This document shows, in pieces, positions 38,215 through 59,225 of a stretch of DNA of 64,000 nt. Both the position numbers and the translations under genes were made by a program. Below the pieces are notes generated by a model that had not been told where the DNA came from, made no database searches, and was given only the letters and a program-made list of their open reading frames with translations. The first letter of the stretch is position 1. Every line of letters begins with the position of its first letter. Source of the stretch: Medicago truncatula. Taxonomy: Eukaryota > Streptophyta > Magnoliopsida > Fabales > Fabaceae. The stretch covers positions 27,006,494 to 27,070,493 of the forward strand of contig NC_053045.1 of assembly GCF_003473485.1 (NCBI RefSeq), written 5' to 3'.

Positions 38215-38888
38215 GACCAATATGATACAAATATGTTAATTTTTGTTTCTAGAGATGAGAAAGGGTGAAGATATGTAAAAGTATGAAATATTTATATTGT
38301 TCCAATGGTTCAAATGGATAATAAGAAATGTTACATGATTAGGTGGAGTACAACTATAGAATATATATATATATATAATTGAAGTGGTGAATTATTATAT
38401 AAGAGTATAGGAGTAAAGATATTATTAAGGTTGGAATGAATGAATGATGGTGAGTCAAGTCAATGTTGGTTGTCAAGTTTGTCCATATCTGTAAAACTTT
38501 ATCACATCACAGCTAAATTGCGTTCAAACTTTTGAATGCTGCTTATTTTTTTCTTCCTATATTAAAGTTTTTGGAAATTTTATTTCTATAGCCATCTTCC
38601 ACGGTGCATAATCATTATTAAGTCTTTAGAAAATTTGACATGAGAAAAAAAGATCATCATTAGAATTAGAATATATGCTCTATATATTTTTTATTAAACC
38701 TTTAATTAGATTACTATAAATTATGATCTTCAGCGTTGGCAACACTTTTTCATTAATTCTTTTTATTAAGGATAAAAAATTTAAAGATAAAGGGTGTGCA
38801 AGCTATAGGGATATAATAACGTTGACGTTAAGATGAGTTTTTTATTATGACTTTTAATGAGTTTTTGATATGATTGCTTATAAGTATA
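38215..38888. promoter_or_regulatory. F-box gene 5' flank and intergenic DNA
   Basis: Read on the - strand, this is the upstream region of the F-box gene. A (TA)n run at about 38363-38378 lies 150 bp before the ATG. No confident promoter element can be named. Confidence 0.3.
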
Positions 38889-43347: not shown

Positions 43348-43352
43348 CAATC
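43348..43352. repeat. Target-site duplication CAATC of the Ogre element (left)
   Basis: CAATC precedes the 5' LTR and recurs at 58180-58184 directly after the 3' LTR, which fixes both element borders. Confidence 0.93.
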
Positions 43353-44863
43353 TGTTATACCCTGTTTTTGGACCTAAAAATACTGGGCCCAATTTCATTT
43401 CAAACTTTGTCAATTATCAAATTTCAACTGCACAGTTCAAATTGTCTCTGCCTCGCAGTATTTTCAATCACAATTTCACCTATGTTTTTTCTTGCATAAA
43501 ACCTTTTGAAATATCTTTACTTGTCTTGTAAGTCATTCAAAAGTGTCTCTGAATCATTACATTGCTTTTTCTACAGTTTATTTCAAAATTTGCAAAAGTC
43601 ATACAGAAGGGTATTTTGGTCATTTCCTGCAGTGGGACCCATTTTCATCCTTGTGACTGTCTCTGAGTCTTTTCAGATTGTTTTTTTTACATTTCATCAG
43701 TAAACCTTGTTAAATTCATTTCAAACTTGCATCTGAGTCAGTGTCAAGTCTGTTTGAGTCAGTTTAGGTCATTTTTAGCCCTAGGGGCATTTTGGTCATT
43801 TCACACGAAATTTTGGCATAGAGAGGTTACTTTGAAGTACCTCATTTAGGTCATTGGTTCGTTTTAGTCCGTTTTGTCAATTTTATTTTTGTTTCGCTTT
43901 ACGTTTGATCAAATTGCGTTTTATTCAATTTTATTTTTTATTGCATTTTGGTCCAGTTTCTTTTCCAATTTGCATTTTAGTCCTTTTTATTATTTTCATA
44001 TTAGTCCCTTAATTTTTCAATTTTGCAGAAAGGTCCCAAATTAATTCTAAGTCCAAGGCCGCACCATTCTTTTTTTTTTCAAGTCCAGGTGTCACTTTTT
44101 CATTTGATCAGATGCACACATGTCAGCTATAAAAGCAGTGGGTCAGAGTCAAAGCCATTAATCACACGCACACACTCACCTTAGATGTATGCATAGGATT
44201 GTATGGTTAAATAAGCGTTTAGGTTTTAAACACTTAGAGAAAATCCATCTTTTTTCAAAAAAAAACAATTGAACTTCACTTCAAAAAATTTCATAATAAA
44301 TATGAAGTCAACACTTCATTTTTTTTCTTTTCTTTTTTCTTAAGAAAAATTCAATTCATCTTAATCATTTAGACTTTCTTTTTAATCACTAATCAAACCT
44401 CACTTTTTTGCTAAATCTAATGCCCTTGAGGCCTCTCATCTCTATTCTTCAAAATCTCTTTTCAAACTTAAAATCAACCAATAAAAACAAAAACCATCTT
44501 TGAGCAAGAACTACGCCGGTTTTGATCCCGTAAAACGGTACGTAGGCAATGAGTCAAAACTCATCCAAGCCGAAATAAAATCAAATTCTACTTCTTCTCA
44601 CCTCCGTTCTTAACTAATCATACCTCCCCTTTTACAAATAAGCAATAAAACTAAAAGCGTAGAAATAAACTTAGGAGAGCGGTTCTTATGGAATACCATA
44701 ATCGCTCCGGGTGCCTAACACCTTCCCGTAGCGAAAACGACCCCCGAACTTAGGATCTAAGGGTTTTTCTCAATTTTGCCCTTCCCAAGAAAAAATAGAG
44801 AATATCAACGGTCAAAAGGTTCAAGTCCAATTAATGGCTTGGCACCCAAAAACCATGATAACA
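43353..44863 (+). repeat. Ogre-lineage 5' LTR, 1511 bp
   Basis: Starts TGTTATACCC and ends GATAACA (TG...CA). A TATA box (TATAAAA, 44128-44134) lies in the middle and marks the probable start of R. By eye I found only two base substitutions and one homopolymer length change against the 3' LTR (56668-58179). Confidence 0.95.
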
Positions 44864-44867
44864 GAAA

Positions 44868-44885
44868 TGGCGACTTCACTGGGGA
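44868..44885 (+). promoter_or_regulatory. Primer-binding site of the Ogre-lineage element
   Basis: TGGCGACTTCACTGGGGA lies four bases after the LTR. It begins with TGG, complementary to the CCA end of a tRNA. Ogre elements are known to use a tRNA-Arg primer with a very similar site, so tRNA-Arg is the likely primer here. Confidence 0.8.
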
Positions 44886-45572
44886 CTCTTTTTAGCGGGT
44901 CGCGCCTAGTTTTCCTTAGTTTATATTTACGCTTTGTTTTATTGCTTACATATGTGAATACTTGTTTACTTTCATTTAACGTGTGGGGTGAGAATATCAA
45001 AAGTCCTAACCCGGGCTGAGTGAACTTATGTTTAGGTAGAGATATAATCGACAATTCGATCCGGGGGTTGCCTCGTGTATTGGATTATGCGATCAATCTC
45101 ACATAGCTGAGGCATTTTGAAGGTGATATTGTCGGCGTGTGTTGTCATGCTTAGGCACTTCACTTTCAATTGTTCGACGAAGCTATGAACCGTAGTTACC
45201 AAACCCATCTTAGCCTTTTTAGGACGTAGTGCGGTGGCTAAATTGAGTGTTGTCTCAAACTTTAGTCGTCACGCGATACTACACTCAAACTAGACCTTCT
45301 CACAAATAATCATGGAACGGGTGTCGTCCTGTACTACCATGATATATGTGAGAGAGGTTGCAGTTTGGGAACTGTGTTAGAACCTTGGTTACTACTATCC
45401 AAAGCCTTAGTTCACCGGACGCCGTGTCCATCCGTTACTTTGAATCTCAACCCACCTTGTCCTTTGTAAACTAAACAACACCATCATGCATACATGCATT
45501 CATACATAAACATTTTTCATGCATTCATCGAAGGGTTTAAACAAATGGAAATTTTTGTAAATAATCACAGGT
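44886..45572 (+). other. 5' leader of the Ogre-lineage element
   Basis: About 690 bases between PBS and ORF1 without a long open frame. The ORF1 ATG is preceded directly by 'tcacagg', which resembles a 3' splice site, so a leader intron is conceivable. Confidence 0.5.
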
Positions 45573-47003
45573 ATGAAGAAGACTAAGTGCTACAAGTTCA
45601 AGGAAGTGGATTTGGTTAGTTTGAGAGAGTTGGCACTCAAAGTCAAGAGTCAAACAGGGTTCCGACTCCGGTATGGGGGATTGCTTACTTTGCTCCGAAC
45701 CGATGTAGATGAGAAGCTAGTGCACACTCTGGTGCAATTTTATGATCCGAGCTTCCGTTGCTTCACTTTCCCGGACTTCCAGTTGGTTCCTACTCTCGAG
45801 GCTTACTCCAATCTAGTGGGTTTACCTATAGCCGAGAAGACGCCTTTCACCGGTCCCGGGGCTTCTCTCACTCCTCTGGTTATTGCTAAGGATCTCTATC
45901 TCAAGACTTCCGACGTCTCCAACCATCTTATTACCAAGTCTCACATCCGGGGGTTCACTTCGAAGTATCTTCTTGATCAGGCTAATCTCGGTACCACTCG
46001 TCAGGACACACTCGAGGCTATTCTTGCTTTGCTTATCTACGGGCTCATTCTCTTTCCGAACCTCGACAACTTCGTGGACATGAATGCTATCGAGATCTTT
46101 CATTCCAAGAACCCGGTTCCTACTTTGCTAGCGGATACTTACCACGCCATTCATGACAGGACTCTCAAGGGCCGTGGGTATATTCTTTGCTGCATATCTC
46201 TCTTGTATAGGTGGTTTATTTCGCACCTTCCGAGTTCCTTCCATGACAACTCGGAAAACTGGTCCTACTCGCAGCGGATTATGGCCCTCACTCCTAATGA
46301 GGTCGTCTGGCTCACTCCGGCCGCTCAGGTGAAGGAAATCATTATGGGTTGCGGAGACTTTCTCAATGTACCTCTTCTTGGTACCCGTGGGGGAATCAAC
46401 TACAATCCCGAGCTTGCTATGAGACAGTTTGGCTTCCCTATGAAGTCAAAACCCATCAATCTTGCTACATCTCCAGAGTTCTTCTTCTACACGAATGCTC
46501 CTACCGGACAAAGGAAAGCTTTCACGGAGGCTTGGTCCAAGGTTCGAAGGAAGAGTGTGAAGCATCTAGGTGTGAGATCCGGTGTCGCTCATGAGGCCTA
46601 TACTCAGTGGGTGATAGATCAAGCTGAGGAGATTGGTATGCCTTATCCAGCTATGAGATACGTGTCTTCATCTGCTCCATCCATGCCTCTACCTTTGCTC
46701 CCCGCGACTCAGGATATGTATCAGGAGCATCTAGCTATGGAGAGTCGTGAGAAGCAAATGTGGCAAGCTCGGTACAATCAAGCTGAGAATCTAATCATGA
46801 CTTTGGATGGTAGAGATGAACAGAAAACTCATGAGAATCTAATGTTGAAGAAAGAACTAGCTAAGGTCCGGAGGGAATTGGAAGAGAAAGACGAGCTGCT
46901 TATGAGGGATTCCAAGAGGGCCAGAGGACGACGAGACTTCTTTGACAGATACTGTGGTTCAGACTCCGAGTCCGATGATCTTCCGACCACTTCCTATGCT
47001 TGA
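45573..47003 (+). CDS. Ogre ORF1 protein
   Basis: 476 aa from ATG, intact. This is the extra ORF that precedes gag in Ogre-type elements. The main globular part (about 10-330) is of the plant 'DUF7745 / mobile-domain-like' type: 'FYDPSFRCFTFPDFQLVPTL', 'EAYSNLVGLP' and 'ILCCISLLYRWFISHLPSSF'. The C-terminus (about 385-450) is a charged coiled coil ('EHLAMESREKQMWQARYNQA', 'KKELAKVRRELEEKDELL') followed by an acidic Ser-rich tail. The function in the life cycle is not known. It ends 201 bases before the gag frame opens. The family placement is recognition from memory; the position in the element is what makes it secure. Confidence 0.85.
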   Translation: MKKTKCYKFKEVDLVSLRELALKVKSQTGFRLRYGGLLTLLRTDVDEKLVHTLVQFYDPSFRCFTFPDFQLVPTLEAYSNLVGLPIAEKTPFTGPGASLTPLVIAKDLYLKTSDVSNHLITKSHIRGFTSKYLLDQANLGTTRQDTLEAILALLIYGLILFPNLDNFVDMNAIEIFHSKNPVPTLLADTYHAIHDRTLKGRGYILCCISLLYRWFISHLPSSFHDNSENWSYSQRIMALTPNEVVWLTPAAQVKEIIMGCGDFLNVPLLGTRGGINYNPELAMRQFGFPMKSKPINLATSPEFFFYTNAPTGQRKAFTEAWSKVRRKSVKHLGVRSGVAHEAYTQWVIDQAEEIGMPYPAMRYVSSSAPSMPLPLLPATQDMYQEHLAMESREKQMWQARYNQAENLIMTLDGRDEQKTHENLMLKKELAKVRRELEEKDELLMRDSKRARGRRDFFDRYCGSDSESDDLPTTSYA

Positions 47004-47204
47004 GAGCTTCATTTGTTTATCTTGTTGGAAATGATATGTTGTTTTGTTTATTTGCAAGATTTCTAATTTGTTTAAAAATCCTTCGATGAAAAAATAAGTC
47101 TTTTGCATTTGCATTTGCATATCATGCATCATATGCATCATGCATTGGTCACAAAGGCTTCCAAGTGCTCACTATCTCCTGGTTCCTCTGCCGCAGTGTG
47201 AAAA

Positions 47205-50200
47205 GTGGCTCGTGCTCAGAGGGTCTACGAACCTGATAGAATTGATCGAACCAGAGAATACAGAAGAAAGAAAAGGGCTATGGAAGAAGAGAACGCTCAG
47301 CTTCGCACCGAATTAGCCACTCTAAGGGAGGAATTGGCTAAAGCTAATGACGTCATGACTGCTCTGCTAGCTGCTCAAGAGCAATCAGCTACAGCTATCC
47401 CTACAACCACAGCTGCACCGGTGACTACAAGCGTGCTCCCAACCACTTCTGCGGACACTCGCTTTGCTATGCCAGTGGGGTTTCCGTATGGGCTTCCACC
47501 GTTCTTCACTCCCAGTACTGCAGCGGGCACTTCGAGCACTGCTAACAATGTTCTGATCTCTGCAACAAATGCTGCCTCCATCAATGCTACTTTGCCACAA
47601 ACAACAGCGGCTGTCACTGAGCCTCTTGTGCATACCCTGCCCCAAGGTGTTAACATCAACACACAGCACGGAAGTATCCCCGTAACCAAGACCATGGAAG
47701 AGATGATGGAGGAACTTGCTAAAGAACTCCGTCACGAGATCAAGGCCAATCGAGGGAATGCGGACTTTTTCAAAACTCAAGATCTTTGCTTAGTGTCAAA
47801 AGTGGATGTTCCTAAAAAGTTCAAAATTCCGGATTTCGACCGGTACAACGGGCTAACTTGCCCTCAAAACCACATCATCAAATACGTCCGAAAGATGGGC
47901 AATTACAAAGACAATGATTCCCTTATGATCCACTGTTTTCAGGATAGTTTGATGGAGGATGCCGCTGAGTGGTATACTAGTTTGAGCAAGAATGACATCC
48001 ATACCTTTGATGAATTAGCCGCTGCTTTCAAGAGCCACTACGGGTTTAACACTCGATTGAAGCCGAATAGGGAGTTTCTCAGGTCCCTATCTCAGAAAAA
48101 GGAGGAAAGTTTCCGTGAATATGCGCAAAGGTGGAGAGGGGCAGCTGCCCGTATCACTCCTGCTTTAGATGAAGAAGAAATGACCCAGACATTCTTAAAA
48201 ACCTTGAAGAAAGATTATGTTGAGAGGATGATCATCGCTGCCCCGAACAACTTTTCAGAGATGGTCACTATGGGAACCCGTCTTGAGGAAGCCGTCAGGG
48301 ATGGAATCATCGTGTTTGAGAAAGCTGAATCCTCTGTAAATGCGTCGAAGAGATATGGTAATGGACACCACAAGAAGAAAGAAACGGAAGTGGGGATGGT
48401 GTCAGCTGGAGCCGGTCAATCAATGGCTACCGTTGCTCCTATCAATGCAGCTCAAATGCCTCCGTCATACCCATACATGCCGTACTCTCAGCATCCGTTC
48501 TTCCCACCGTTTTACCATCAGTACCCCCTGCCGCCGGGTCAACCTCAAGTGCCCGTCAATGCAATTGCCCAACAGATGAAACAACAGTTGCCGGTTCAAC
48601 AACAACAACAACAACAACAGCAGCAGCAATATACCAGACCAACTTTTCCTCCTATACCAATGTTGTATGCAGAACTTCTTCCAACTCTACTCCAGAGAGG
48701 GCATTGTACAACTAGACAGGGCAAGCCACCACCTGATCCGTTGCCTCCAAGGTTCAGGTCTGATCTCAAATGTGACTTTCATCAAGGTGCCTTAGGTCAT
48801 GATGTCGAGGGGTGTTATGCTTTGAAGTATATCGTGAAGAAACTCATTGATCAAGGGAAGCTGACTTTTGAGAATAATGTTCCACATGTCCTCGACAATC
48901 CGCTACCAAATCATGCCGCTGTGAATATGATCGAAGTGTGTGAGGAAGCTCCTAGACTTGATGTCCGCAATGTCGCAACTCCTCTGGTGCCTCTGCACAT
49001 CAAGCTGTGCAAAGCTTCTCTGTTCAGCCATGATCATGCCAAGTGTCTAGGATGCCTCCGTGATCCTTTGGGTTGCCATGCTGTTCAAGACGACATCCAA
49101 AGCTTGATGGATGATAATCTTCTGACTGTCAGTGATGTTTGCGTGGTCGTGCCAGTTTTTCACGATCCGCCTGTCAAGAGTGTACCTTTGAAGAAGAATG
49201 CTGAGCCTTTGGTGATAAGGTTGCCAGGACCAATTCCTTATGTTTCGGACAAGGCAGTGCCATACAAGTACAATGCTACTATGATAGAAAATGGAGTAGA
49301 GGTGCCTCTAGCCTCCTTTGCCACAGTAAGCAATATTGCCGAAGGGACTTCTGCAGCGCTAAGAAGCGGGAAAGTCCGTCCGCCGTTATTTCAGAAGAAA
49401 GTAGCTACACCGACCATTCCGCCAGATGAAGAAGCAACTCCAACCGTTGTTTCACCCATTGCTACAGATGTGAACCAGTCAGGAAAATCTATAGAGGATT
49501 CAAATTTAGATGAGATTCTAAGGATAATAAAGAGGAGCGACTACAAGATCGTTGATCAGTTGCTGCAGACTCCTTCGAAGATATCTGTCTTGTCATTACT
49601 CTTGAGCTCTGAGGCTCACAGGAATACCTTGTTGAAAGTGCTGGAGCAGGCATATGTTGACCACGAAGTTACGGTAGATCGGTTTGGTGGCATAGTGGGA
49701 AATATTACTGCTTGTAACAACCTCTGGTTCAGTGAAGAAGAGTTGCCAGAAGTGGGAAAGGGTCACAATCTGGCTTTGCACATCTCGGTGAATTGCAAAT
49801 CAGACATGATATCAAATGTGTTGGTGGATACCGGTTCCTCCCTCAATGTAATGCCCAAGACGACTCTAGACCAGTTGAGCTACCGTGGGACCCCTTTGAG
49901 GAGGAGTACTTTCTTGGTCAAAGCTTTTGATGGATCTCGAAAGAATGTGCTGGGAGAGATAGACTTGCCGATAACCATTGGCCCTGAGAATTTCTTGGTT
50001 ACTTTCCAAGTGATGGACATTAATGCATCCTACAGTTGCCTGCTGGGAAGACCGTGGATACACGATGCAGGTGCGGTTACTTCCACCTTACATCAGAAGT
50101 TGAAATTTGTGAAGAATGGAAAGCTCGTTACCATTCATGGTGAAGAGGCATACTTAGTCAGCCAGCTGTCTTCCTTTTCTTGTATTGAAGCAGGGTCTGC

Positions 50201-50543
50201 TGAAGGGACTGCTTTCCAAGGATTGACCATTGAAGGTGCGGAGCCTAAGAAAGCTGGGGCTGCTATGGCTTCATTGAAAGATGCTCAGAAGGTTATCCAG
50301 GAAGGTCAGACTGCCGGATGGGGCAAGGTGATACAGCTCTGTGAGAACAAGCGTAAAGAAGGTCTCGGGTTCTCCCCGTCGTCAAGGGTTTCCTCAGGAG
50401 TCTTCCACAGTGCTGGGTTTGTTAATACTGTCTCTGAAGAAGCAACTGGATCTGGTCTCAGGCCTGCATTTGTTACACCAGGAGGCATTGCGAGAGATTG
50501 GGATGCCATTGACATTCCTTCAATCATGCATGTGTCCGAGTAA
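47205..50543 (+). CDS. Ogre Gag-protease polyprotein
   Basis: The open frame starts after a TGA at 47199. The first ATG in it is 47280 (upstream codons begin with GTG at 47205), so the protein is about 1087 aa from that ATG. Parts in order: N-terminal coiled coil; retrotransposon Gag core (about 47800-48310, 'FKIPDFDRYNGLTCPQNHI' and 'AEWYTSL'); poly-Gln tract (about 48597-48630); a Cys/His motif 'CDFHQGALGHDVEGCYAL' in place of a classical zinc knuckle; aspartic protease with active site LVDTGSS (about 49821-49841) and 'CLLGRPWI'; a G-patch-like end ('GWGKVIQLCENK', 'GLGFSPS', about 50314-50385). Gag forms the particle and protease matures it. The stop TAA (50541-50543) lies inside the intron candidate 50540-50828, so splicing would continue the frame into pol. 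Confidence 0.9.
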   Translation: MARAQRVYEPDRIDRTREYRRKKRAMEEENAQLRTELATLREELAKANDVMTALLAAQEQSATAIPTTTAAPVTTSVLPTTSADTRFAMPVGFPYGLPPFFTPSTAAGTSSTANNVLISATNAASINATLPQTTAAVTEPLVHTLPQGVNINTQHGSIPVTKTMEEMMEELAKELRHEIKANRGNADFFKTQDLCLVSKVDVPKKFKIPDFDRYNGLTCPQNHIIKYVRKMGNYKDNDSLMIHCFQDSLMEDAAEWYTSLSKNDIHTFDELAAAFKSHYGFNTRLKPNREFLRSLSQKKEESFREYAQRWRGAAARITPALDEEEMTQTFLKTLKKDYVERMIIAAPNNFSEMVTMGTRLEEAVRDGIIVFEKAESSVNASKRYGNGHHKKKETEVGMVSAGAGQSMATVAPINAAQMPPSYPYMPYSQHPFFPPFYHQYPLPPGQPQVPVNAIAQQMKQQLPVQQQQQQQQQQQYTRPTFPPIPMLYAELLPTLLQRGHCTTRQGKPPPDPLPPRFRSDLKCDFHQGALGHDVEGCYALKYIVKKLIDQGKLTFENNVPHVLDNPLPNHAAVNMIEVCEEAPRLDVRNVATPLVPLHIKLCKASLFSHDHAKCLGCLRDPLGCHAVQDDIQSLMDDNLLTVSDVCVVVPVFHDPPVKSVPLKKNAEPLVIRLPGPIPYVSDKAVPYKYNATMIENGVEVPLASFATVSNIAEGTSAALRSGKVRPPLFQKKVATPTIPPDEEATPTVVSPIATDVNQSGKSIEDSNLDEILRIIKRSDYKIVDQLLQTPSKISVLSLLLSSEAHRNTLLKVLEQAYVDHEVTVDRFGGIVGNITACNNLWFSEEELPEVGKGHNLALHISVNCKSDMISNVLVDTGSSLNVMPKTTLDQLSYRGTPLRRSTFLVKAFDGSRKNVLGEIDLPITIGPENFLVTFQVMDINASYSCLLGRPWIHDAGAVTSTLHQKLKFVKNGKLVTIHGEEAYLVSQLSSFSCIEAGSAEGTAFQGLTIEGAEPKKAGAAMASLKDAQKVIQEGQTAGWGKVIQLCENKRKEGLGFSPSSRVSSGVFHSAGFVNTVSEEATGSGLRPAFVTPGGIARDWDAIDIPSIMHVSE

Positions 50544-50828
50544 TGTGTCTTGTTGCTTTAGCGCTTTGTTTTCAAAAATAACAATCATCTCGCTCTGCCC
50601 AAAGCGAGAGTGATATTTTCTGTAAGGGCATGTTTGTTTCGGCATTGCCGTTGATTAATAAAATTTTGTCGTTTCTTCCACGACTACTTTTTTTTAGTGC
50701 TTTTTTTTCCCTTGGAAACAATGGTAATGCCAGAAAAAACCAAAACATCTGTATTTTCTTATTAATTTCAAAAAAAATCTGCATGAAAAAAAAAACTCTT
50801 TCTAAAATCATCCAATCATTATATGCAG
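50540..50828 (+). other. Intron candidate between gag-protease and pol (289 nt)
   Basis: A GT at 50540 (GTAATG) and an AG at 50827-50828 (TATGCAG) delimit an AT-rich 289-nt interval that contains the gag-protease stop codon. Removing it leaves two bases of a codon on the left and one on the right and places the pol frame (from 50830) in register. Ogre elements are known for such an intron whose partial splicing sets the Gag to Gag-Pol ratio. The site pair here is my reading and has not been tested. Confidence 0.8.
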
Positions 50829-50829
50829 G

Positions 50830-53800
50830 TTGAACCATAATAAACCCGTTGAACACAGTAATCTTACGGTTCCTCCAAGTTTTGATTTCCCTGTGTATGA
50901 AGCCGAAGATGAGGAAGGTGATGACATACCGTATGAGATCACTCGGTTACTTGAGCAAGAAAAGAAAGCCATTCAGTCTCACCAAGAAGAGATTGAGCTT
51001 ATCAACATAGGTACCGAGGAAAACAAGCGAGAAATCAAGATTGGTGCTACTCTAGAGGAAGGGGTTAAACAGAAGATCATCCAGCTCCTCCGGGAATATC
51101 CGGATATTTTTGCATGGTCCTATGAAGATATGCCAGGTCTAGATCCTATGATTGTGGAGCATCGGATCCCCACCAAGCCTGAATGTCCTCCCGTCAGGCA
51201 GAAATTGAGAAGGACTCATCCTGATATGGCTCTCAAGATTAAGAGCGAGGTTCAAAAGCAAATTGATGCGGGTTTCCTCATGACAGTTGAGTACCCTGAA
51301 TGGGTTGCTAATATTGTGCCCGTGCCAAAGAAGGATGGTAAAGTCCGGATGTGTGTTGACTTCAGAGACCTGAACAAAGCCAGTCCAAAAGACAACTTTC
51401 CATTACCTCATATTGATGTGCTTGTTGATAATACTGCTCAATCTAAGGTGTTCTCCTTCATGGACGGTTTTTCCGGCTATAATCAGATCAAAATGTCTCC
51501 TGAAGATAGAGAAAAGACATCTTTTATCATTCCATGGAGTACTTTCTGCTACAAAGTGATGCCGTTCGGCCTAATCAATGCTGGTGCTACCTACCAAAGG
51601 GGAATGACCACTCTGTTTCATGACATGATTCACAAAGAAGTTGAGGTATATGTGGATGACATGATTGTGAAGTCAGCAGATGAGGAGCAGCATGTTGAAT
51701 ATTTAACAAAGATGTTTGAAAGGTTGAGAAAATACAAGCTACGATTGAATCCCAACAAATGTACATTCGGCGTCAGATCCGGCAAGTTATTAGGCTTCAT
51801 TGTCAGCCAAAAGGGCATTGAAGTCGATCCTGATAAAGTCCGGGCCATCCGAGAAATGCCAGCTCCACAGACAGAGAAGCAAGTCAGAGGTTTCCTGGGA
51901 CGCTTGAATTACATCTCCCGATTCATATCTCATATGACTGCAACCTGCGGGCCGATCTTCAAGCTACTTAGAAAGAACCAGCCTGTTGTATGGAATGATG
52001 AATGCCAAGAAGCTTTTGATAGCATCAAGAATTACCTGCTGGAACCACCTATCCTTGTCCCACCCGTGGAAGGAAGGCCTTTGATTATGTATTTGGCAGT
52101 ATTTGATGAATCCATGGGATGCGTACTTGGTCAACAAGATGAAACCGGAAAGAAAGAACATGCTATCTACTATCTAAGCAAGAAGTTCACCGATTGTGAA
52201 ACTCGGTATACAATGCTTGAAAAGACTTGTTGTGCTCTAGCTTGGGCTGCTAAACGCCTGCGTCATTACTTGGTGAATCATACAACTTGGCTGATATCCA
52301 GAATGGATCCGATAAAGTATATCTTTGAGAAAGCGGCCGTTACTGGGAAGATCGCACGCTGGCAGATGCTTTTGTCTGAATATGATATTGTGTTCAAAAC
52401 TCAAAAGGCAATCAAAGGCAGCATCCTCGCCGATCACCTTGCTTATCAACCTCTTGATGATTACCAACCAATTGAATTCGATTTCCCTGATGAAGAGATC
52501 ATGTATTTGAAATCCAAAGACTGCGACGAACCGTTGATTAATGAAGGTCCAGATCCCAATAGCAAGTGGGGTTTAATCTTTGATGGTGCTGTCAATGCTT
52601 ATGGTAAAGGAATTGGGGCAGTCATTGTATCCCCGCAGGGGCATCACATTCCTTTTACCGCCAGAATTTTGTTCGAATGTACCAACAATATGGCTGAGTA
52701 TGAAGCATGTATCTTCGGGATCGAGGAAGCAATTGACATGAGAATCAAACACCTCGACATCTATGGAGATTCTGCGCTCGTCATCAATCAGATAAAGGGT
52801 GAATGGGAGACCCACCATGCTAAGTTGATTCCTTATCGTGATTATGCGAGACGTCTTCTGACATATTTTACAAAGGTTGAGCTGCACCGTATTCCTCGTG
52901 ATGAGAACCAAATGGCTGATGCTCTTGCTACTCTATCCTCCATGTTTCAAGTAAACCATTGGAATGATGTGCCAATAATTAAAGTGCAACGCCTTGAAAG
53001 ACCTTCGCATGTGTTTGCTATTGGGGATGTGATCGATCAGGCTGGTGAAAATGTGGTTGACTATAGACCCTGGTACTATGACATCAAGCAGTTCTTGCTG
53101 AGCCGTGAGTATCCGCCAGGTGCTTCCAAACAAGACAAGAGGACCTTGAGAAGATTGGCCGGTAGATTCCTGTTAGATGGAGATATTCTGTACAAGAGGA
53201 ACTATGACATGGTATTGTTAAGGTGTGTTGATGAACATGAAGCAGAGCAGTTAATGCATGATGTACATGATGGTACCTTCGGGACCCATGCTACAGGGCA
53301 TACTATGTCAAGGAAGTTGTTACGAGCAGGTTACTACTGGATGGCCATGGAGCATGATTGCTACCAATACGCCAGAAAATGCCACAAATGTCAAATCTAT
53401 GCTGATAAGATTCATGTGCCTCCGCACGCTCTCAATGTTATGTCATCCCCATGGCCGTTCTCAATGTGGGGCATCGACATGATTGGAAGAATTGAACCGA
53501 AGGCTTCAAATGGTCATCGTTTCATCTTAGTGGTAATTGACTACTTCACCAAATGGGTTGAAGCAGCATCTTATACCAATGTGACCAAGCAAGTGGTAGC
53601 TAAGTTTATCAAGAACAACATCATCTGCCGATATGGTGTTCCCAGTAAGATTATTACCGACAATGGTACCAACCTGAACAGCAATGTGGTGCAAGCTCTT
53701 TGTGAAGAATTCAAAATTGAGCATCATAACTCTTCTCCTTATAGACCTCAGATGAATGGTGCAGTTGAGGCCGCCAACAAGAATATCAAGAGAATCGTCC

Positions 53801-54318
53801 AGAAGATGGTAACCACTTACAAGGACTGGCATGAGATGTTACCCTATGCTCTGCATGGCTACCGCACTACCGTGCGCAGTTCAACCGGGGCAACCCCTTT
53901 CTCTCTTGTATATGGTATGGAAGCAGTTCTTCCTTTGGAAGTGGAGATCCCATCTCTCCGTGTGATAATGGAAGCAAAGTTATCTGAGGCTGAATGGTGC
54001 CAAAGCCGGTATGATCAGTTGAATTTGATTGAGGAAAAACGTATGGATGCCATGGCTCGTGGACAGTCATATCAAGCAAGAATGAAGACTGCCTTTGACA
54101 AGAAAGTCCATCCTCGAGAATTCAAGGTAGGGGAACTTGTATTGAAAAGGAGGGTAAGCCAGCAACCCGACCCAAGGGGCAAGTGGACGCCTAACTATGA
54201 AGGTCCTTATGTTGTCAAGAAGGCCTTCTCCGGTGGTGCTTTAATCCTTACACACATGGATGGTGTAGAACTTCCAAATCCAGTGAATGCTGATATAGTC
54301 AAGAAATACTTTGCCTAG
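50830..54318 (+). CDS. Ogre Pol: reverse transcriptase, two RNase H domains, integrase
   Basis: An 1162-codon open frame with no ATG at its start (first codon TTG), as expected if it is reached by splicing. Parts: reverse transcriptase (about 51170-51800) with 'VDFRDLNKASPKDNFPLP' and catalytic YVDD at 51649-51660; the usual gypsy RNase H (about 52080-52440); a second, archaeal-like RNase H (about 52560-52930) with 'FDGAVNAYGKGIGAV', 'NNMAEYEA', 'YGDSALVI' and 'NQMADALA', typical of the Tat lineage; integrase with an HHCC finger (about 53250-53400) and a D,D-35-E core (Asp 53476-53478, Asp 53659-53661, Glu 53767-53769). No chromodomain follows. All catalytic residues are present and the frame is unbroken. 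Confidence 0.95.
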   Translation: MNHNKPVEHSNLTVPPSFDFPVYEAEDEEGDDIPYEITRLLEQEKKAIQSHQEEIELINIGTEENKREIKIGATLEEGVKQKIIQLLREYPDIFAWSYEDMPGLDPMIVEHRIPTKPECPPVRQKLRRTHPDMALKIKSEVQKQIDAGFLMTVEYPEWVANIVPVPKKDGKVRMCVDFRDLNKASPKDNFPLPHIDVLVDNTAQSKVFSFMDGFSGYNQIKMSPEDREKTSFIIPWSTFCYKVMPFGLINAGATYQRGMTTLFHDMIHKEVEVYVDDMIVKSADEEQHVEYLTKMFERLRKYKLRLNPNKCTFGVRSGKLLGFIVSQKGIEVDPDKVRAIREMPAPQTEKQVRGFLGRLNYISRFISHMTATCGPIFKLLRKNQPVVWNDECQEAFDSIKNYLLEPPILVPPVEGRPLIMYLAVFDESMGCVLGQQDETGKKEHAIYYLSKKFTDCETRYTMLEKTCCALAWAAKRLRHYLVNHTTWLISRMDPIKYIFEKAAVTGKIARWQMLLSEYDIVFKTQKAIKGSILADHLAYQPLDDYQPIEFDFPDEEIMYLKSKDCDEPLINEGPDPNSKWGLIFDGAVNAYGKGIGAVIVSPQGHHIPFTARILFECTNNMAEYEACIFGIEEAIDMRIKHLDIYGDSALVINQIKGEWETHHAKLIPYRDYARRLLTYFTKVELHRIPRDENQMADALATLSSMFQVNHWNDVPIIKVQRLERPSHVFAIGDVIDQAGENVVDYRPWYYDIKQFLLSREYPPGASKQDKRTLRRLAGRFLLDGDILYKRNYDMVLLRCVDEHEAEQLMHDVHDGTFGTHATGHTMSRKLLRAGYYWMAMEHDCYQYARKCHKCQIYADKIHVPPHALNVMSSPWPFSMWGIDMIGRIEPKASNGHRFILVVIDYFTKWVEAASYTNVTKQVVAKFIKNNIICRYGVPSKIITDNGTNLNSNVVQALCEEFKIEHHNSSPYRPQMNGAVEAANKNIKRIVQKMVTTYKDWHEMLPYALHGYRTTVRSSTGATPFSLVYGMEAVLPLEVEIPSLRVIMEAKLSEAEWCQSRYDQLNLIEEKRMDAMARGQSYQARMKTAFDKKVHPREFKVGELVLKRRVSQQPDPRGKWTPNYEGPYVVKKAFSGGALILTHMDGVELPNPVNADIVKKYFA

Positions 54319-54340
54319 AAATATGAAAAGAACAGCGTGG

Positions 54341-55216
54341 TAGGTCGAAAACCCGAAAGGGCGGCCTAGGCAAAAATGCGCTTCCCGGTGGATCGAAAAC
54401 CCGAAAGGGCGGTCCAGGCAAAAATAAGGGACAAAAAAATATATATGAAAAGCTCGCTGAGATTGTACGCAACTCAGGCAAGAATGAGCGTCTCGATGAG
54501 CCGAAAACCCGGAAGGGCGGTTCATGCAAAAATGAGATTGAAACAAAAGGCAAGTAACTATACCTGGCTAACCACCGTCCTCCTTGGGGCATCTGCAGCT
54601 GTTAATGACCATCTTCATCTGAAGCTTCTGTACTTGTGAATTCAAAGTTTTTTGGGAAATGTAATGATTACTGTGTTCAATGTACCACCAACCAATAAAA
54701 TTACCATTTTCCAAGCTTTGTGAATCCGTGGAGTCACGCCTTCGGCTGACCACCACTCTTATACATCAAATTGAGCCTGTGCTTTTGTTTAAAACTCTAC
54801 TTTCTTCTATTTTCAAAGCTATATACAAATCATTTTCCTTCTATTTTGATAATGACAATGCTTGAAACAAACATTTTGAAAATTGAAAACCTTTTGTCTA
54901 TTTTGAAAAGCAAACCTGAGCAACAGGGTACATTCAAATGAAACATGCACGAGCGAGAGTATGTTGATGTCTATTTCAATATATGTTACAAGCAGGTTCT
55001 CCTCCAGGATAGTCTGTGGTCAATGGCAAGAATGAAAAAACAGAATGAAAATGCATGAAAATAAATGAGCTCGCTAAGTTGAAAACCCGAAAGGGCGGCT
55101 TAGGCAAAAATGAGCACCCCGCTGGATTGACAACCCGAAAGGGCAGTTCAGGCAAAAATGAGGCATTGAAAAGAATTTATTTCCCCGATGGATCGAAAAC
55201 CCGAAAGGGCGATCCA
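54341..55216 (+). repeat. Array of six covarying 28-nt hairpins in the Ogre 3' region
   Basis: Copies at 54341-54368, 54389-54416, 54497-54524, 55075-55102, 55123-55150 and 55189-55216. Each has a 7-base left arm, AAAA (once ACAA), CCC, a tetraloop, GGG and a 7-base right arm. Five of the six are then followed by GGCAAAAAT and the third by TGCAAAAAT. Left/right arms: TAGGTCG/CGGCCTA, TGGATCG/CGGTCCA, TGAGCCG/CGGTTCA, TAAGTTG/CGGCTTA, TGGATTG/CAGTTCA, TGGATCG/CGATCCA. All arms pair fully when G-U is allowed. Tetraloops are GAAA five times and GGAA once, both GNRA. Spacing is irregular, so the copies are dispersed units and not a simple tandem repeat. The RNA-level role is unknown; packaging, dimerisation, stability or RNA export are candidates. 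Confidence 0.85.
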
Positions 55217-56653
55217 GGCAAAAATGGGATGCAAAAAAAAAAAAAAAATGAAAATGAATGAAAATTGAGAAAATAACATGCAAAAAGCATTGACCACAGA
55301 TGCAATGTCTACAACGTACCCAGCACTGAAATGCCCAGCACAACGGCGTTTTCCCCAGTAAAGTCTTCCAAGATTCTATCTCCAGCAAGTTGCATACCTG
55401 CCTGCCCTCAGCCTTGGCTCCGATACGTCTCCCAACGACGTCATCTCCAAAGAGGATTTCCAAGAATGTGTAATATAGCACGAGCCACTACGTGCCCAAT
55501 GATCTGATGTCTTGTCTTCCCCGTGAAGTCGTGCCTACAAAATGCCAACAGTCATGCATTACAAGCATTCATACATGTATAATCATGCATATTACGTACC
55601 CATGCATATTAATGAATCTGTTATATCATCCATGCATATTGCATTTCCAATGTCAACATCAGTCTCAATTCAATACTCATGTCAGGTTCTCTGTCAAAAC
55701 CTTGTGAGCCAATAATATCGGTCAATTTCTACCTTTCAAATCAAATCGACGTCAAGTCAATCTCAATCTACATTTTGCCAACAAACCAATCCCCAGTGAA
55801 TATGTTTCTGTTTGGTCAAGTGGCTAGTTCAAGTCCAAGAACAGCTTGTACCTATCAATTTGCTTATGTTATCGGTCGAGTGCCCAGCTCAATCCAAGAG
55901 CAGCTCGTACCTGTCAATATGTTTCCGTTTGGTCAAGTGGCTAGCTCGATCCAAGAGCAGCTTGTACCTGTCTATCTGTTTCTGTCCGGTGGAGTAACCA
56001 GTTCGCATCCAAGAACAAGCTCGCACCTGTCTATTTGCCTTGCTTTCAGTCGAGTAACTAGTTCGAATCCCTAAGAACAACTCGTACCTGCCAATTTTAC
56101 ATGTTTTCAGTCGAGTCACCAGTTCGAATCCGTAAGAACAACTCGTACTTGCCAATTTTCTCTTTTTCCCAGTCGGGTCACCAGTTCGAATCCATAAGAA
56201 CAACTCGCACTTTCCAATATCCCCAAGTGAGTTACCAGTTCGAATCCATAAGAACAACTCATGTTTGTCCAGTAACCTCTATCCCCTGTGAAGTGACCAG
56301 TTCGAATCCATAAGAACAACTCGCAGTTGTCTGTTTGTTTCATCCCCGGTCAAGTGGCTAGTTTGAATCCAAGAGCAGCTTGTACCTGTCCAACTTGTTT
56401 CTAGTTTCCCGTTGCTCCGCTATTCACTATCTTTGTCAATGTCTACCAATCCCGCAATGGATACGACATATTTTGTTAATTCCAATCCCCATGAGGTCTT
56501 GCATTCATAATCCAAATGATGCATGGCATGCATATTATTTGAAAATGGGTAGGCGTATTTTTACGTCCAAACACAGTGCAAATGCTAATATTTAAGTATC
56601 TTCGTCCTGTCAAGCCAAAGACTCCGTCTCTTGACTCTCCAGACAAAGAAACT
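54369..56653 (+). other. Long 3' untranslated region of the Ogre-lineage element
   Basis: About 2.3 kb between the pol stop (54316-54318) and the 3' LTR. Besides the two hairpin arrays it holds no protein-coding frame with recognisable content. The short open frames through the first array merely translate its repeats. Confidence 0.7.
55814..56386 (+). repeat. Array of ten covarying two-stem hairpins in the Ogre 3' region
   Basis: Units start at 55814, 55874, 55931, 55988, 56048, 56109, 56171, 56225, 56288 and 56348 (period about 60, hairpin about 40 nt). Each has an outer stem (GGTCAAG or GGTCGAG on the left; CTTGTACC or CTCGTACC on the right, one bulged base), an inner stem (GTTC/GAAC or GCTC/GAGC) and a 7-10-nt loop. 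Changes are compensated between arms in most copies: CAAG/CTTG, CGAG/CTCG and TGAG/CTCA; GTTC/GAAC and GCTC/GAGC; GGT/ACC and AGT/ACT. Units 4 and 9 each have an imperfect outer stem. Units 5-9 also contain GTTCGAATCC, which resembles a pol III B box. Tandem repeats are known from 3' regions of Ogre elements; conserved pairing in them is what stands out here. Confidence 0.85.
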
Positions 56654-56667
56654 TAAATAGGGGCAGC
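56654..56667 (+). promoter_or_regulatory. Polypurine tract of the Ogre-lineage element
   Basis: TAAATAGGGGCAGC directly precedes the 3' LTR. AAATAGGGGCAG is the purine-rich core where plus-strand DNA synthesis should start. Ogre-type elements have a similar G-rich tract. Confidence 0.75.
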
Positions 56668-58179
56668 TGTTATACCCTGTTTTTGGACCTAAAAATACTG
56701 GGCCCAATTTCATTTCAAACTTTGTCAATTATCAAATTTCAACTGCACAGTTCAAATTGTCTCTGCCTCGCAGTATTTTCAATCACAATTTCACCTATGT
56801 TTTTTCTTGCATAAAACCTTTTGAAATATCTTTACTTGTCTTGTAAGTCATTCAAAAGTGTCTCTGAATCATTACATTGCTTTTTCTACAGTTTATTTCA
56901 AAATTTGCAAAAGTCATACAGAAGGGTATTTTGGTCATTTCCTGCAGTGGGACCCATTTTCATCCTTGTGACTGTCTCTGAGTCTTTTCAGATTGTTTTT
57001 TTTACATTTCATCAGTAAACCTTGTTAAATTCATTTCAAACTTGCATCTGAGTCAGTGTCAAGTCTGTTTGAGTCAGTTTAGGTCATTTTTAGCCCTAGG
57101 GGCATTTTGGTCATTTCACACGAAATTTTGGCATAGAGAGGTTACTTTGAAGTACCTCATTTAGGTCATTGGTTCGTTTTAGTCCGTTTTGTCAATTTTA
57201 TTTTTGTTTCGCTTTACGTTTGATCAAATTGCGTTTTATTCAATTTTATTTTTTATTGCATTTTGGTCCAGTTTCTTTTCCAATTTGCATTTTAGTCCTT
57301 TTTATTATTTTCATATTAGTCCCTTAATTTTTCAATTTTGCAGAAAGGTCCCAAATTAATTCTAAGTCCAAGGCCGCACCATTCTTTTTTTTTTTCAAGT
57401 CCAGGTGTCACTTTTTCATTTGATCAGATGCACACATGTCAGCTATAAAAGCAGTGGGTCAGAGTCAAAGCCATTAATCACACGCACACACTCACCTTAG
57501 ATGTATGCATAGGATTGTATGGTTAAATAAGCGTTTAGGTTTTAAACACTTAGAGAAAATCCATCTTTTTTAAAAAAAAAACAATTGAACTTCACTTCAA
57601 AAATTTTCATAATAAATATGAAGTCAACACTTCATTTTTTTTCTTTTCTTTTTTCTTAAGAAAAATTCAATTCATCTTAATCATTTAGACTTTCTTTTTA
57701 ATCACTAATCAAACCTCACTTTTTTGCTAAATCTAATGCCCTTGAGGCCTCTCATCTCTATTCTTCAAAATCTCTTTTCAAACTTAAAATCAACCAATAA
57801 AAACAAAAACCATCTTTGAGCAAGAACTACGCCGGTTTTGATCCCGTAAAACGGTACGTAGGCAATGAGTCAAAACTCATCCAAGCCGAAATAAAATCAA
57901 ATTCTACTTCTTCTCACCTCCGTTCTTAACTAATCATACCTCCCCTTTTACAAATAAGCAATAAAACTAAAAGCGTAGAAATAAACTTAGGAGAGCGGTT
58001 CTTATGGAATACCATAATCGCTCCGGGTGCCTAACACCTTCCCGTAGCGAAAACGACCCCCGAACTTAGGATCTAAGGGTTTTTCTCAATTTTGCCCTTC
58101 CCAAGAAAAAATAGAGAATATCAACGGTCAAAAGGTTCAAGTCCAATTAATGGCTTGGCACCCAAAAACCATGATAACA
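56668..58179 (+). repeat. Ogre-lineage 3' LTR, 1512 bp
   Basis: Begins TGTTATACCC and ends GATAACA, followed by the TSD CAATC. TATA box at 57444-57450. Differences seen against the 5' LTR: one extra T near 57384, C to A near 57572 and A to T near 57604. Confidence 0.95.
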
Positions 58180-59225
58180 CAATCACACCAATAATTCATC
58201 ACCACGTATATAATCATACACCATGTCATAATAAACATACACATGGATTCACCAATATCATCACCTTCTCATAATTTCATATCAATTACATGATTTACAA
58301 TAATCAACAAACATCAATTATCACATGTGGTTTCACCAATATCAAGCACTCTCATATTCCAAGTAAGAGGGAAAACAACATCTCATGATAAATATCATAT
58401 TCAACATCTACGATTCATCATACATCAACATGATTATCAATAATCAACAATGTCATTCAACATCATATATATATTCACCCACCATATCATAATAAGGAAT
58501 GTATATGGATTCACCAAAATCATCACCTTAAGATAAACATCACATTCAAACAATCATTCAATCATACAACTTCACTTAGTCATATAAGAATAGTCACAAC
58601 AACTCATAAGATAATTGGCTAAAGAAACATTTCCGACAAAAAATCCAAATCATGTGGCAAACGGCCAACATTGATAATTTTCAAGCTAGGCAACTTATTC
58701 AAGTTTGAAATCCTACAATTCAATCTTAATCAATCATGTAGTGAAGGACTTAAGCCACTTGCAAACTATTAGAAATTAGTTCAAAGTATAGCTTAAGTTC
58801 GTATGAGAAATTCCAAGACAAAACAACATTTAACTCAAAACCCGTTTTCACTGATTCAACTCCGCCCAAAATATTTCTTAAACCATCAACACATTCACAT
58901 TCCCAATACATAAATGCATACTCAATTATTCACTCTAAGCACTTCATTAAATCCAATATCAAGTTTGGAAAAGTCTCACGACTCATAAAAAAAGTTATGC
59001 TAAGTTTTCACAAAAATCCACATGACTCGTGTGTAGTAATTTAATCATATCTCAAGTTCTAAAAATCATTTGGACGTCAAACCAAAACCATTAGAAAGCT
59101 AACAAAATTATCTAAAACTTTCATGTTTACACCAAAGTCCAATTCAAAACAGAAATAGGTGAAAAAGATGCAAGAATGCGAAACAGGGGGTGCTGTCACT
59201 GTGCAACTCGCCCCGCGAGTGAATC

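What the first reader, a model, noticed from the sequence alone, without database searches (positions are those of the whole stretch)
54341..55216. Six dispersed RNA hairpins with GNRA tetraloops and covarying stems in a retrotransposon 3' region
Six 28-nt units have identical architecture: 7-bp outer stem, AAAA bulge, CCC/GGG inner stem and GNRA tetraloop, mostly followed by GGCAAAAAT. The outer arms differ between copies, but all seven pairs remain possible in each copy, for example TAGGTCG/CGGCCTA, TGGATCG/CGATCCA, TAAGTTG/CGGCTTA and TGGATTG/CAGTTCA. The one tetraloop change (GAAA to GGAA) stays within GNRA. Plain repeat decay would break pairs; here changes are matched by complementary or G-U changes. 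This suggests selection for RNA structure, perhaps a packaging, dimerisation or stability signal. Tandem repeats are known in Ogre 3' regions; I know of no description of this covarying structure.
Basis: partly seen in the sequence, partly recalled or inferred. Interest (0 to 1): 0.9.

Follow-up and report, generated by a model that had tools for sequence, protein, structure and literature searches.

The report
Selected RNA hairpins in Ogre retrotransposons
A large plant retrotransposon carries, just after its last gene, a set of RNA hairpins whose two halves have changed together over evolution and which are kept even in relatives without a recognisable reverse transcriptase, so they are probably a signal that the element's RNA needs in order to be copied.

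Summary
The six units are real; all 42 outer-arm pairs can form. They lie 3' of pol in a 14.8-kb Ogre-type element. The core pattern occurs 2,970 times in the host genome and 0 times reversed.

Covariation survives branch-level tests. In 107 distinct units all 10 inferred two-sided changes kept pairing (shuffles: mean 1.1, maximum 8 in 20,000); 30 bootstrap trees give p<=0.005. On internal branches single changes make G·U more often than A·C (15:2) and seldom break pairs (40 kept, 6 broken); terminal branches look neutral (17:16; 29:36). This points to selection on the sense RNA.

Six examined relatives, bounded by direct repeats 96.9-99.9% identical, show no reverse-transcriptase match yet keep hairpins: probably a cis signal used in trans. 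Packaging is my first guess, export or stability second; both untested.

The 60-bp repeats downstream covary too, more weakly.

Against: unremarkable folding energies, few individually significant pairs, 56 copies with a broken inner pair, one genome only, copies found by the motif.

The parts
43353..58179 (+). Ogre-type Ty3/gypsy LTR retrotransposon, flanked by 5-bp target-site duplication CAATC (43348-43352 and 58180-58184)
   Evidence: LTR match 99.8% over 1513 bp; ends, TSD and primer sites read
43353..44863 (+). 5' LTR
44864..44886 (+). likely primer binding site (GAAATGGCGACTTCACTGGGGAC); tRNA-Arg type by analogy with published Medicago Ogre families, complementarity not tested
   Evidence: tRNA-Arg for Ogre families in PMC2533021 (passages)
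45561..47003 (+). ORF1 (DUF7745), upstream of gag (stop-to-stop frame)
   Evidence: PF24924, E=1e-118
47202..50543 (+). gag-protease frame (stop-to-stop); no CCHC zinc-knuckle match; the protease match is below the Pfam cut-off (E 0.00054)
50806..54318 (+). pol frame (stop-to-stop): RT, RNase H, second RNase H-like domain (RVT_3), integrase; stop TAG at 54316-54318
54334..54382 (+). H1: outer stem AGCGT/GCGCT, 7-bp stem TAGGTCG/CGGCCTA (arms 54341-54347, 54362-54368), AAAA bulge, CCC/GGG, GAAA loop
54383..54431 (+). H2: outer stem TCCC/GGGA, stem TGGATCG/CGGTCCA; abuts H1
54490..54538 (+). H3: outer stem GTCTCG/TGAGAT, stem TGAGCCG/CGGTTCA, GGAA loop
54670..54790 (+). block between the two groups of three hairpins that is better conserved than most of the sequence between units
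54728..54753 (+). seventh hairpin GTGGAGTCACGCCTTCGGCTGACCAC inside that block; U-A/C-G and G-C/A-U changes among 23 aligned elements
55069..55115 (+). H4: outer stem GCTCG/TGAGC, stem TAAGTTG/CGGCTTA
55117..55164 (+). H5: stem TGGATTG/CAGTTCA, ACAA bulge; outer stem (CCCC opposite GAGG) not formed in this copy
55182..55229 (+). H6: outer stem TCCC/GGGA, stem TGGATCG/CGATCCA
55814..56386 (+). ten tandem monomers (T1-T10, TRF periods 57-62 bp) with nested stems (typically GGT/ACC, CRAGT/RCTYG, GYTC/GARC) and covarying pairs
56655..56667 (+). likely polypurine tract (AAATAGGGGCAGC) next to the 3' LTR
56668..58179 (+). 3' LTR

Best explanation
Shown by sequence: the 3' region of this Ogre-type element carries two groups of three hairpins with a conserved block between them. 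A typical hairpin has an outer stem, an asymmetric internal loop (2-3 nt opposite 9-11 nt with GGCAAAAAU), a 7-bp stem, a four-A bulge, a 3-bp stem and usually a GNRA loop. The helices change sequence while keeping pairing in the sense strand, and the unpaired bulge and internal-loop bases change less. Inferred: the hairpins are repeated binding sites on the genomic RNA. A protein, or the RNA itself through the GNRA and A-rich loops, reads the unpaired bases while the helices present them. Because young relatives without an RT match keep them, they act in cis and let an RNA be taken up by proteins made elsewhere. The most likely step is recognition and packaging of genomic RNA by Gag. My confidence is about 0.9 for selection on the sense-strand structure and about 0.4 for packaging as the step; the number below is for the whole statement.
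For: Covariance-model hits: 120 in 26 of 26 sources and 66 in 20 of 20 more loci, all chosen because they hold the motif. Core: 98.6% of 860 cells paired in 86 distinct units, 28-50% when slid. Outer helix of 4 bp or more in 95% of 88 distinct units, 62% on average (maximum 74%) with swapped flanks. Branch-level co-changes canonical 9 of 9 and 10 of 10 (11 of 11 on another tree, slid controls 0-2); in 30 bootstrap trees 5-24 canonical of 7-25 co-changes, p 0.0025-0.005 with a floor of 0.0025. Internal versus terminal branches: G.U to A.C 15:2 versus 17:16, kept to broken 40:6 versus 29:36 (Fisher p 0.013 and 4e-6). Without any filter on the tail, GCAA follows the 3' arm in 84 of 88 distinct units; AAAA bulge in 73 of 84 and GNRA in 73 of 84 without core indel. 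Group C: no RT match in 6 of 6, direct repeats 96.9-99.9% identical, target duplications read in two of five, primer-site string in five of five printed ends, hairpins present. A-to-C identity 0.72-0.88 in the six units, 0.47 in the adjoining pol remnant, 0.51 between units.
Against: No functional or probing data. Folding-energy z-scores of 3' regions do not consistently stand out from LTR and flank. In a per-pair test only the top pair is below E 0.05 (about 0.025), the second is about 0.2, the other structure pairs are at E 11 or more, and ranks 4-6 are not structure pairs. The C-A mismatch pattern of the inner stem has 56 copies against 165 of U-A, and by 5' arm they fall into sets of 16, 10, 9, 6 and 15 others, so imperfect forms have probably multiplied more than once (the U-G and C-G counts did not complete). 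Between groups A and B two units align poorly (H4 0.67, H6 0.45). This element's Gag has no recognisable CCHC knuckle. Packaging signals known from retroviruses lie mostly near the 5' end (recalled). Export or stability would leave the same traces.
Confidence: 0.45

Rival explanations
1. The hairpins are an RNA export or stability element: repeated binding sites for a host factor that bring the partly unspliced genomic RNA out of the nucleus or protect its long 3' UTR from nonsense-mediated decay, like the transport elements of MPMV, IAP and MusD or the RSV stability element.
For: The first 7-bp arm begins 22 nt after the pol stop codon, with more than 2 kb between stop and 3' LTR. [quoted passage not shown] It would also be kept in non-autonomous relatives.
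Against: No Rfam match at E<=1. No expression or localisation data.
Confidence: 0.32
2. The hairpins have no function: template switching during reverse transcription or replication re-copies one arm from the other and keeps the stems paired by mutation alone.
For: Template switching can create and maintain hairpins and gives double changes in one event; the abstract also says that it can explain asymmetric base-pair frequencies in RNA stems, which I did not follow up (PMC8794818, abstract and outline).
Against: Re-copying should leave Watson-Crick pairs (my inference), but G.U pairs are frequent (105 cells against 5 A.C of 860) and favoured on internal branches only (15:2 against 17:16). It does not explain why unpaired bulge and loop bases are kept in a region that is otherwise about 50% identical between groups A and C.
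Confidence: 0.08
3. DNA-level inverted repeats (cruciforms, or hot spots for duplication) or simple shared ancestry of copies, with pairing a by-product.
For: Copies are related, and shuffles that ignore relatedness overstate covariation (stated in the description of the tool used). Tandem duplication at hairpins during reverse transcription is plausible.
Against: Branch-level tests that respect relatedness and the strand-specific G.U bias on internal branches.
Confidence: 0.07
4. A translation signal for the ORFs upstream, such as stop-codon readthrough or a cap-independent enhancer.
For: First hairpin starts close behind the pol stop.
Against: Kept in elements whose pol is missing apart from a broken integrase tail; one of them (L018) has no open frame of 150 aa or more in the two chunks scanned. 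The frame downstream in the window is only 152 aa without Pfam match.
Confidence: 0.06

Closest known systems
Tandem-repeat 'hypervariable 3' UTR' of Tat-lineage elements, including Ogre (Macas et al. 2009, cited in PMC7004042 and PMC11963269; the 2009 paper itself not seen)
   Same: Same place (between pol and 3' LTR) and same lineage; arrays that differ between groups were found here too.
   Different: Published work treats them as repeats and sources of satellites; [quoted passage not shown] 'Hairpin' and 'secondary structure' have 0 occurrences in the main texts of PMC7004042 and PMC11963269.
Retroviral structured export or stability elements (MPMV CTE, IAP RTE, MusD MTE, RSV RSE; RTE and MTE seen in a passage, the others recalled)
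   Same: Structured cis elements on genomic RNA.
   Different: No Rfam match at E<=1; here a motif repeated six times with strongly conserved unpaired bases.
Retroviral packaging signals with exposed hairpin loops (recalled), and the dimerisation and packaging signals ascribed to the barley parasite element BARE2 (PMC3735527, passages)
   Same: Kept by elements that rely on others for proteins.
   Different: Those are retroviral or Copia and, in retroviruses, mainly near the 5' end (recalled); here Ty3/gypsy, 3' of pol, and no CCHC knuckle match in Gag.
LARD and TR-GAG non-autonomous LTR elements (TR-GAG recalled; LARDs in Medicago in PMC2533021, passages)
   Same: Group C elements are bounded by near-identical repeats and lack an RT match.
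   Different: They share the hairpins with the autonomous family; in the printed ends 5 of 5 show its primer-site string and 3 of 5 its polypurine string, which points to this family as helper.

Membership tests
Ogre lineage (Ty3/gypsy, Tat clade) | Extra ORF upstream of gag | tested here: met
   DUF7745 frame 45561-47003 upstream of gag; an ORF upstream of GAG is reported for Medicago Ogre families (PMC2533021, passages)
Ogre lineage (Ty3/gypsy, Tat clade) | Second, archaeal-type RNase H between RNase H and integrase (defining role recalled) | tested here: met
   RVT_3 at pol residues 600-709, between RT_RNaseH and integrase
Ogre lineage (Ty3/gypsy, Tat clade) | tRNA-Arg primer binding site | tested here: inconclusive
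   Site read next to the 5' LTR, same string in 5 of 5 group C ends printed; complementarity to tRNA-Arg not computed
Ogre lineage (Ty3/gypsy, Tat clade) | Intron in pol | not tested
   Frames are separate with a gap at 50544-50805; no transcript data
Ogre lineage (Ty3/gypsy, Tat clade) | Large size, tandem repeats between pol and 3' LTR | tested here: met
   14.8 kb; array from 55799 on
Ogre lineage (Ty3/gypsy, Tat clade) | Place in an RT phylogeny | not tested
   no tree of RT domains was built
Evolutionarily conserved RNA structure | Compensatory changes beyond what phylogeny gives | tested here: met
   per-pair significance weak. R-scape itself was not available
Evolutionarily conserved RNA structure | Strand specificity (G.U tolerated, A.C not) | tested here: met
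   15:2 on internal, 17:16 on terminal branches
Evolutionarily conserved RNA structure | More stable than shuffled sequence | tested here: not met
   3' region z-scores like controls; single units z -0.35 to -3.16. A common but not a necessary feature of such RNAs
Any described Rfam family, including self-cleaving ribozymes and viral elements | Match to a covariance model | tested here: not met
   0 matches at E<=1 over 53000-57500
Retroviral-type packaging signal | Needed for incorporation of genomic RNA into particles | not testable with these tools
   Only retention in relatives without RT match
Constitutive-transport-type export element | Promotes export of unspliced RNA | not testable with these tools
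   none

The most novel reading that the evidence does not exclude
The whole stretch between pol and 3' LTR of Ogre elements is a modular platform of structure-conserved hairpins. The dispersed GNRA units and the fast-changing tandem arrays are both selected as RNA hairpins, so the 'hypervariable' 3' repeats of unknown function are hairpin arrays whose sequence turns over while the fold is kept, and non-autonomous relatives live on the same signal.
Probability: 0.33. Interest if true: 0.85.

Novelty: new variant of a known kind. Interest (0 to 1): 0.72.

Why it matters
Ogre-type elements make up a large part of some legume genomes (45% in Lathyrus sativus according to PMC7004042, passage seen). 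How their RNA is exported has not been studied directly (PMC12786077, passage), and the function of such repeats behind pol is stated to be unknown (PMC11963269, Discussion). A defined motif with thousands of copies, with natural compensatory variants and relatives without RT that keep it, makes the question testable with reporters and probing. It would also give a sequence-and-structure tag for finding non-autonomous partners of Ogre elements.

Tried and rejected
Rfam: no match. Relatives outside this genome: none by pattern or protein in viral contigs; 24 pattern hits in prokaryote genomes have unpaired arms (0-5 of 7 pairs) and are near my rough chance expectation of about 15, so chance. 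In one search I first cut the 3' arm of those hits at the wrong offset; one search repeats it correctly.

Folding energy: I expected the 3' regions to be unusually stable; one search says they are not consistently so, on either strand (sense means -0.01 to -0.99 in seven 3' regions, -0.38 to -1.04 in four LTRs, -0.30 in the window's flank, +0.19 in its coding part), so I do not use energy as an argument.

General claim 'every 3' tandem repeat is a hairpin': supported for the window's array in A-type elements by pair counts, less by events: 3 canonical of 5 co-changes in 34 distinct monomers, p 0.0036, but single-sided changes 12 kept and 12 broken; one false row dropped. For the 95/103-bp arrays of four group C elements the stems are clear by eye but the event test finds 0 canonical of 1 co-change, p=1. 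The 28-59-bp arrays were only looked at by eye. Kept as the novel case, not as a result.

Per-pair covariation with a phylogenetic null: only two pairs approach significance; 17 of 88 units were left out for indels or unclear register. The enlarged set starts from 154 units (88 already distinct ones plus 66), leaves out 25, blanks the outer columns of 10, and merges duplicates to 107. My filter there demanded a tail like NRCNAA, so the low change rate of those loop columns is partly built in; the unfiltered count is.

DNA cruciform, template switching and translation signals were considered; see rivals.

Inner-stem counts genome-wide: U-A 165, C-A 56; the U-G and C-G counts, and a pattern for a purine at position 5 of the 3' arm, were asked for and never answered.

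Full report
WHAT IS THERE. The window lies on contig C4 of a 430-Mb genome in 42 contigs; contig sizes match Medicago truncatula A17 (recalled). The finding sits in an LTR retrotransposon at 43353-58179 with LTRs 99.8% identical over 1513 bp, a 5-bp duplication CAATC on both sides, a frame with DUF7745 upstream of gag, a gag-protease frame, and a pol frame with RT, two RNase H-like domains and integrase ending in a TAG at 54316-54318. This is the layout of Ogre elements; PMC2533021 describes two Medicago Ogre families with an ORF upstream of GAG, a tRNA-Arg primer and an intron in pol (passages).

THE SIX UNITS. H5 has ACAA instead of AAAA, and H3 is followed by TGCAAAAAT. The outer stems of H1 and H2 abut, and H4's ends one base before the CCCC of H5, so neighbouring hairpins could stack (inference). 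The arrangement is two groups of three, with a conserved block between them that holds a seventh hairpin at 54728-54753.

HOW COMMON. The exact pattern AAAACCCN4GGGN7GGCAAAAAT has 2,970 matches in the genome and none when read backwards. A covariance model from the six units finds 120 units in 26 of 26 sources and 66 in 20 of 20 further loci, 2-5 per source. Neighbours whose 53-nt windows overlap are not both listed: H1 of the window is missing there. All loci were chosen because they hold the motif, so I cannot say what share of Ogre elements lack it. A protein search with the integrase part scored 131 of 5,303 candidates, the best copies only, and does not answer that.

THREE GROUPS. By the last 149 residues of integrase, ten window-like loci, window included, are 96-100% identical (group A; an eleventh row, L005, overlaps L004), four loci are 78-82% (group B), and five rows (four elements) give only broken matches of 35-51%; nine loci gave none at E 1e-5, four of which give weak pieces at 1e-3. 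Loci with decayed or no pol tail and the C-type hairpins I call group C. Six of them were examined with flanks. They are bounded by direct repeats 96.9, 97.6, 98.8, 99.4, 99.7 and 99.94% identical (in L017 the repeat comes in two pieces, in L019 it is 4.6 kb long and includes a gag piece). Of five whose ends I printed, two show a 5-bp target duplication (L021 GTAAC, L003 CACCA), five show the primer-site string and three the polypurine string of the window element. None of the six has a match to RT, RNase H or protease of the window element; they keep gag pieces (one, L014, a 503-aa open frame) and a decayed integrase tail. So they look like recent insertions moved by enzymes made elsewhere (inference). 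All six keep hairpins: five units each in the list. Identity between groups A (10 loci) and C (9 loci) is 0.72-0.88 within the six units, 0.47 in the pol remnant and 0.51 between units. Between A and B (4 loci) it is 0.76-0.94 in four units but 0.67 in H4 and 0.45 in H6, with pol 0.73 and 0.48 between units (five overlapping, near-duplicate or partial loci left out). Decay of coding with retention of the hairpins is the best pointer to a cis-acting signal.

IS THE COVARIATION REAL? On 86 distinct units 98.6% of cells pair against 28-50% when partners are slid, but that control ignores relatedness. An R-scape-like test of my own on 69 distinct units (17 of 88 left out) ranks an outer pair first (E about 0.025) and a core pair second (E about 0.2) of 1,275 column pairs. 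Column pair 8-37, which would extend the stem in units with A-U or C-G there (41 of 107 units; 50 have G-G), is third; ranks 4-6 are not structure pairs; the remaining structure pairs have E of about 11 or more, because each column changed only a few times. Counting changes branch by branch has more power: 9 branch-and-pair cases changed both partners and all 9 kept pairing (shuffled partners: mean 0.66, maximum 7 in 20,000). With 107 distinct units it is 10 of 10 (mean 1.14, maximum 8). A second tree gives 11 of 11 with 0-2 in slid structures. Thirty bootstrap trees give 5-24 canonical of 7-25 co-changes and p from 0.0025 (the floor) to 0.005, so the signal is stable though the number of events is not. 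One clean case: the third hairpin of the first group, A (window H3) against C (L021), differs by five two-sided changes and one G.U-to-A-U change with no broken pair.

WHICH MOLECULE, AND IS IT SELECTION? A G-C or A-U pair that loses one side by transition gives G.U or A.C; the two are equivalent in double-stranded DNA but only G.U pairs in the sense RNA. On terminal branches, which should hold mostly changes after insertion, the ratio is 17:16 and single changes break pairs as often as not (29 kept, 36 broken). On internal branches, which passed through replication, it is 15:2 and 40 kept against 6 broken (Fisher p 0.013 and 4e-6). Bootstrap means agree (13.7:2.6 internal, 21.5:15.8 terminal). 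This contrast is what purifying selection on the sense RNA predicts and is hard to get from DNA-level palindromes. The unpaired bases are kept: GCAA after the 3' arm in 84 of 88 distinct units, AAAA in 73 of 84, GNRA in 73 of 84. The still lower change rate of the loop columns is partly imposed by my filter.

COUNTER-EVIDENCE. Energies of 120-nt windows in the 3' regions of seven elements are not consistently lower than in LTRs and flank. A C-A mismatch in the inner stem occurs in 56 copies genome-wide; by 5' arm they are TGGACTG 16, TGGATCG 10, TAGACCG 9, TAAGTCG 6 and 15 others, so imperfect forms probably multiplied in more than one lineage, against 165 with the U-A double change. A purine at position 4 of the 3' arm, in an otherwise intact core, occurs in only 3 copies: variation in this genome is almost all transitions, so the evidence for pairing rests on fewer kinds of change than in an old RNA family.

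THE TANDEM ARRAY. The repeats at 55814-56386 also hold nested inverted repeats: 94.2% of 120 cells paired in ten monomers against 22-45% slid, five pairs with two-sided changes. In 34 distinct monomers of group A, 3 of 5 co-changes are canonical (p 0.0036), while single-sided changes kept pairing 12 times and broke it 12 times. The group C elements examined have other arrays; those of L021, L018, L014 and L001 show 6+6-bp stems in most array monomers printed, with alternating outer arms TTACCT/AGGTAA and TTGTCT/AGACAA in L021, but the event test gives no support there. This is suggestive of a general rule, not proof.

MECHANISM. Repeated hairpins with variable helices and conserved unpaired bases are typical of protein-binding or loop-docking sites (general knowledge). 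Since elements without RT match keep them, the function is probably in cis and serves any RNA that uses the family's machinery. I put packaging or genomic-RNA recognition first (about 0.4), export or stability second (about 0.3). [quoted passage not shown]

NOVELTY. Nothing in Rfam matches. Nine answered searches of 5.39 million open papers, for the core string and for Ogre, Tat or plant LTR elements with structure, hairpin, stem-loop, packaging or 3' terms, gave no description in the listings or in the passages opened. [quoted passage not shown] Macas 2009 and Macas and Neumann 2007 are known to me only through reference lists. I call it a new variant of a known kind: a cis-acting retroelement RNA structure, in a place and form not described for plants in what I could search.

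Noticed in passing
window 56048-56327 (monomers T5-T9): Five of ten tandem monomers contain AGTTCGAATCC, close to the tRNA B-box (GGTTCGANTCC, recalled); could be chance or a Pol III-like signal.
   Followed up: no
window 54675-54680 and 54771-54776: GTTCAA and TTGAGC, unchanged in 22 of 23 aligned elements (one has a G-U at the end pair), can pair over a long range around the central hairpin; since they hardly vary this is neither for nor against.
   Followed up: partly
window 47202-50543: Gag of this Ogre has no CCHC zinc knuckle by regular expression or Pfam.
   Followed up: partly
L033/L034 (L014 element) and L039/L040 (L021 element): Elements without RT match but with open gag frames (503 aa in L014; at least 335 aa in L021), recalling TR-GAG elements (name recalled); LTR identity 99.4 and 99.9%.
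   Followed up: partly
genome G000, units with 5' arm TAGACCG: A form with a C-A mismatch in the inner stem (CCC/AGG) is listed at nine places; a natural imperfect form for testing.
   Followed up: no
L031/L032 (L019 element): Direct repeat of 4.6 kb at 99.7% that includes a gag piece in both copies: unusual LTR or recombined element.
   Followed up: no
window 37180-38235, minus strand: Open frame with F-box match in the flank of the element.
   Followed up: no
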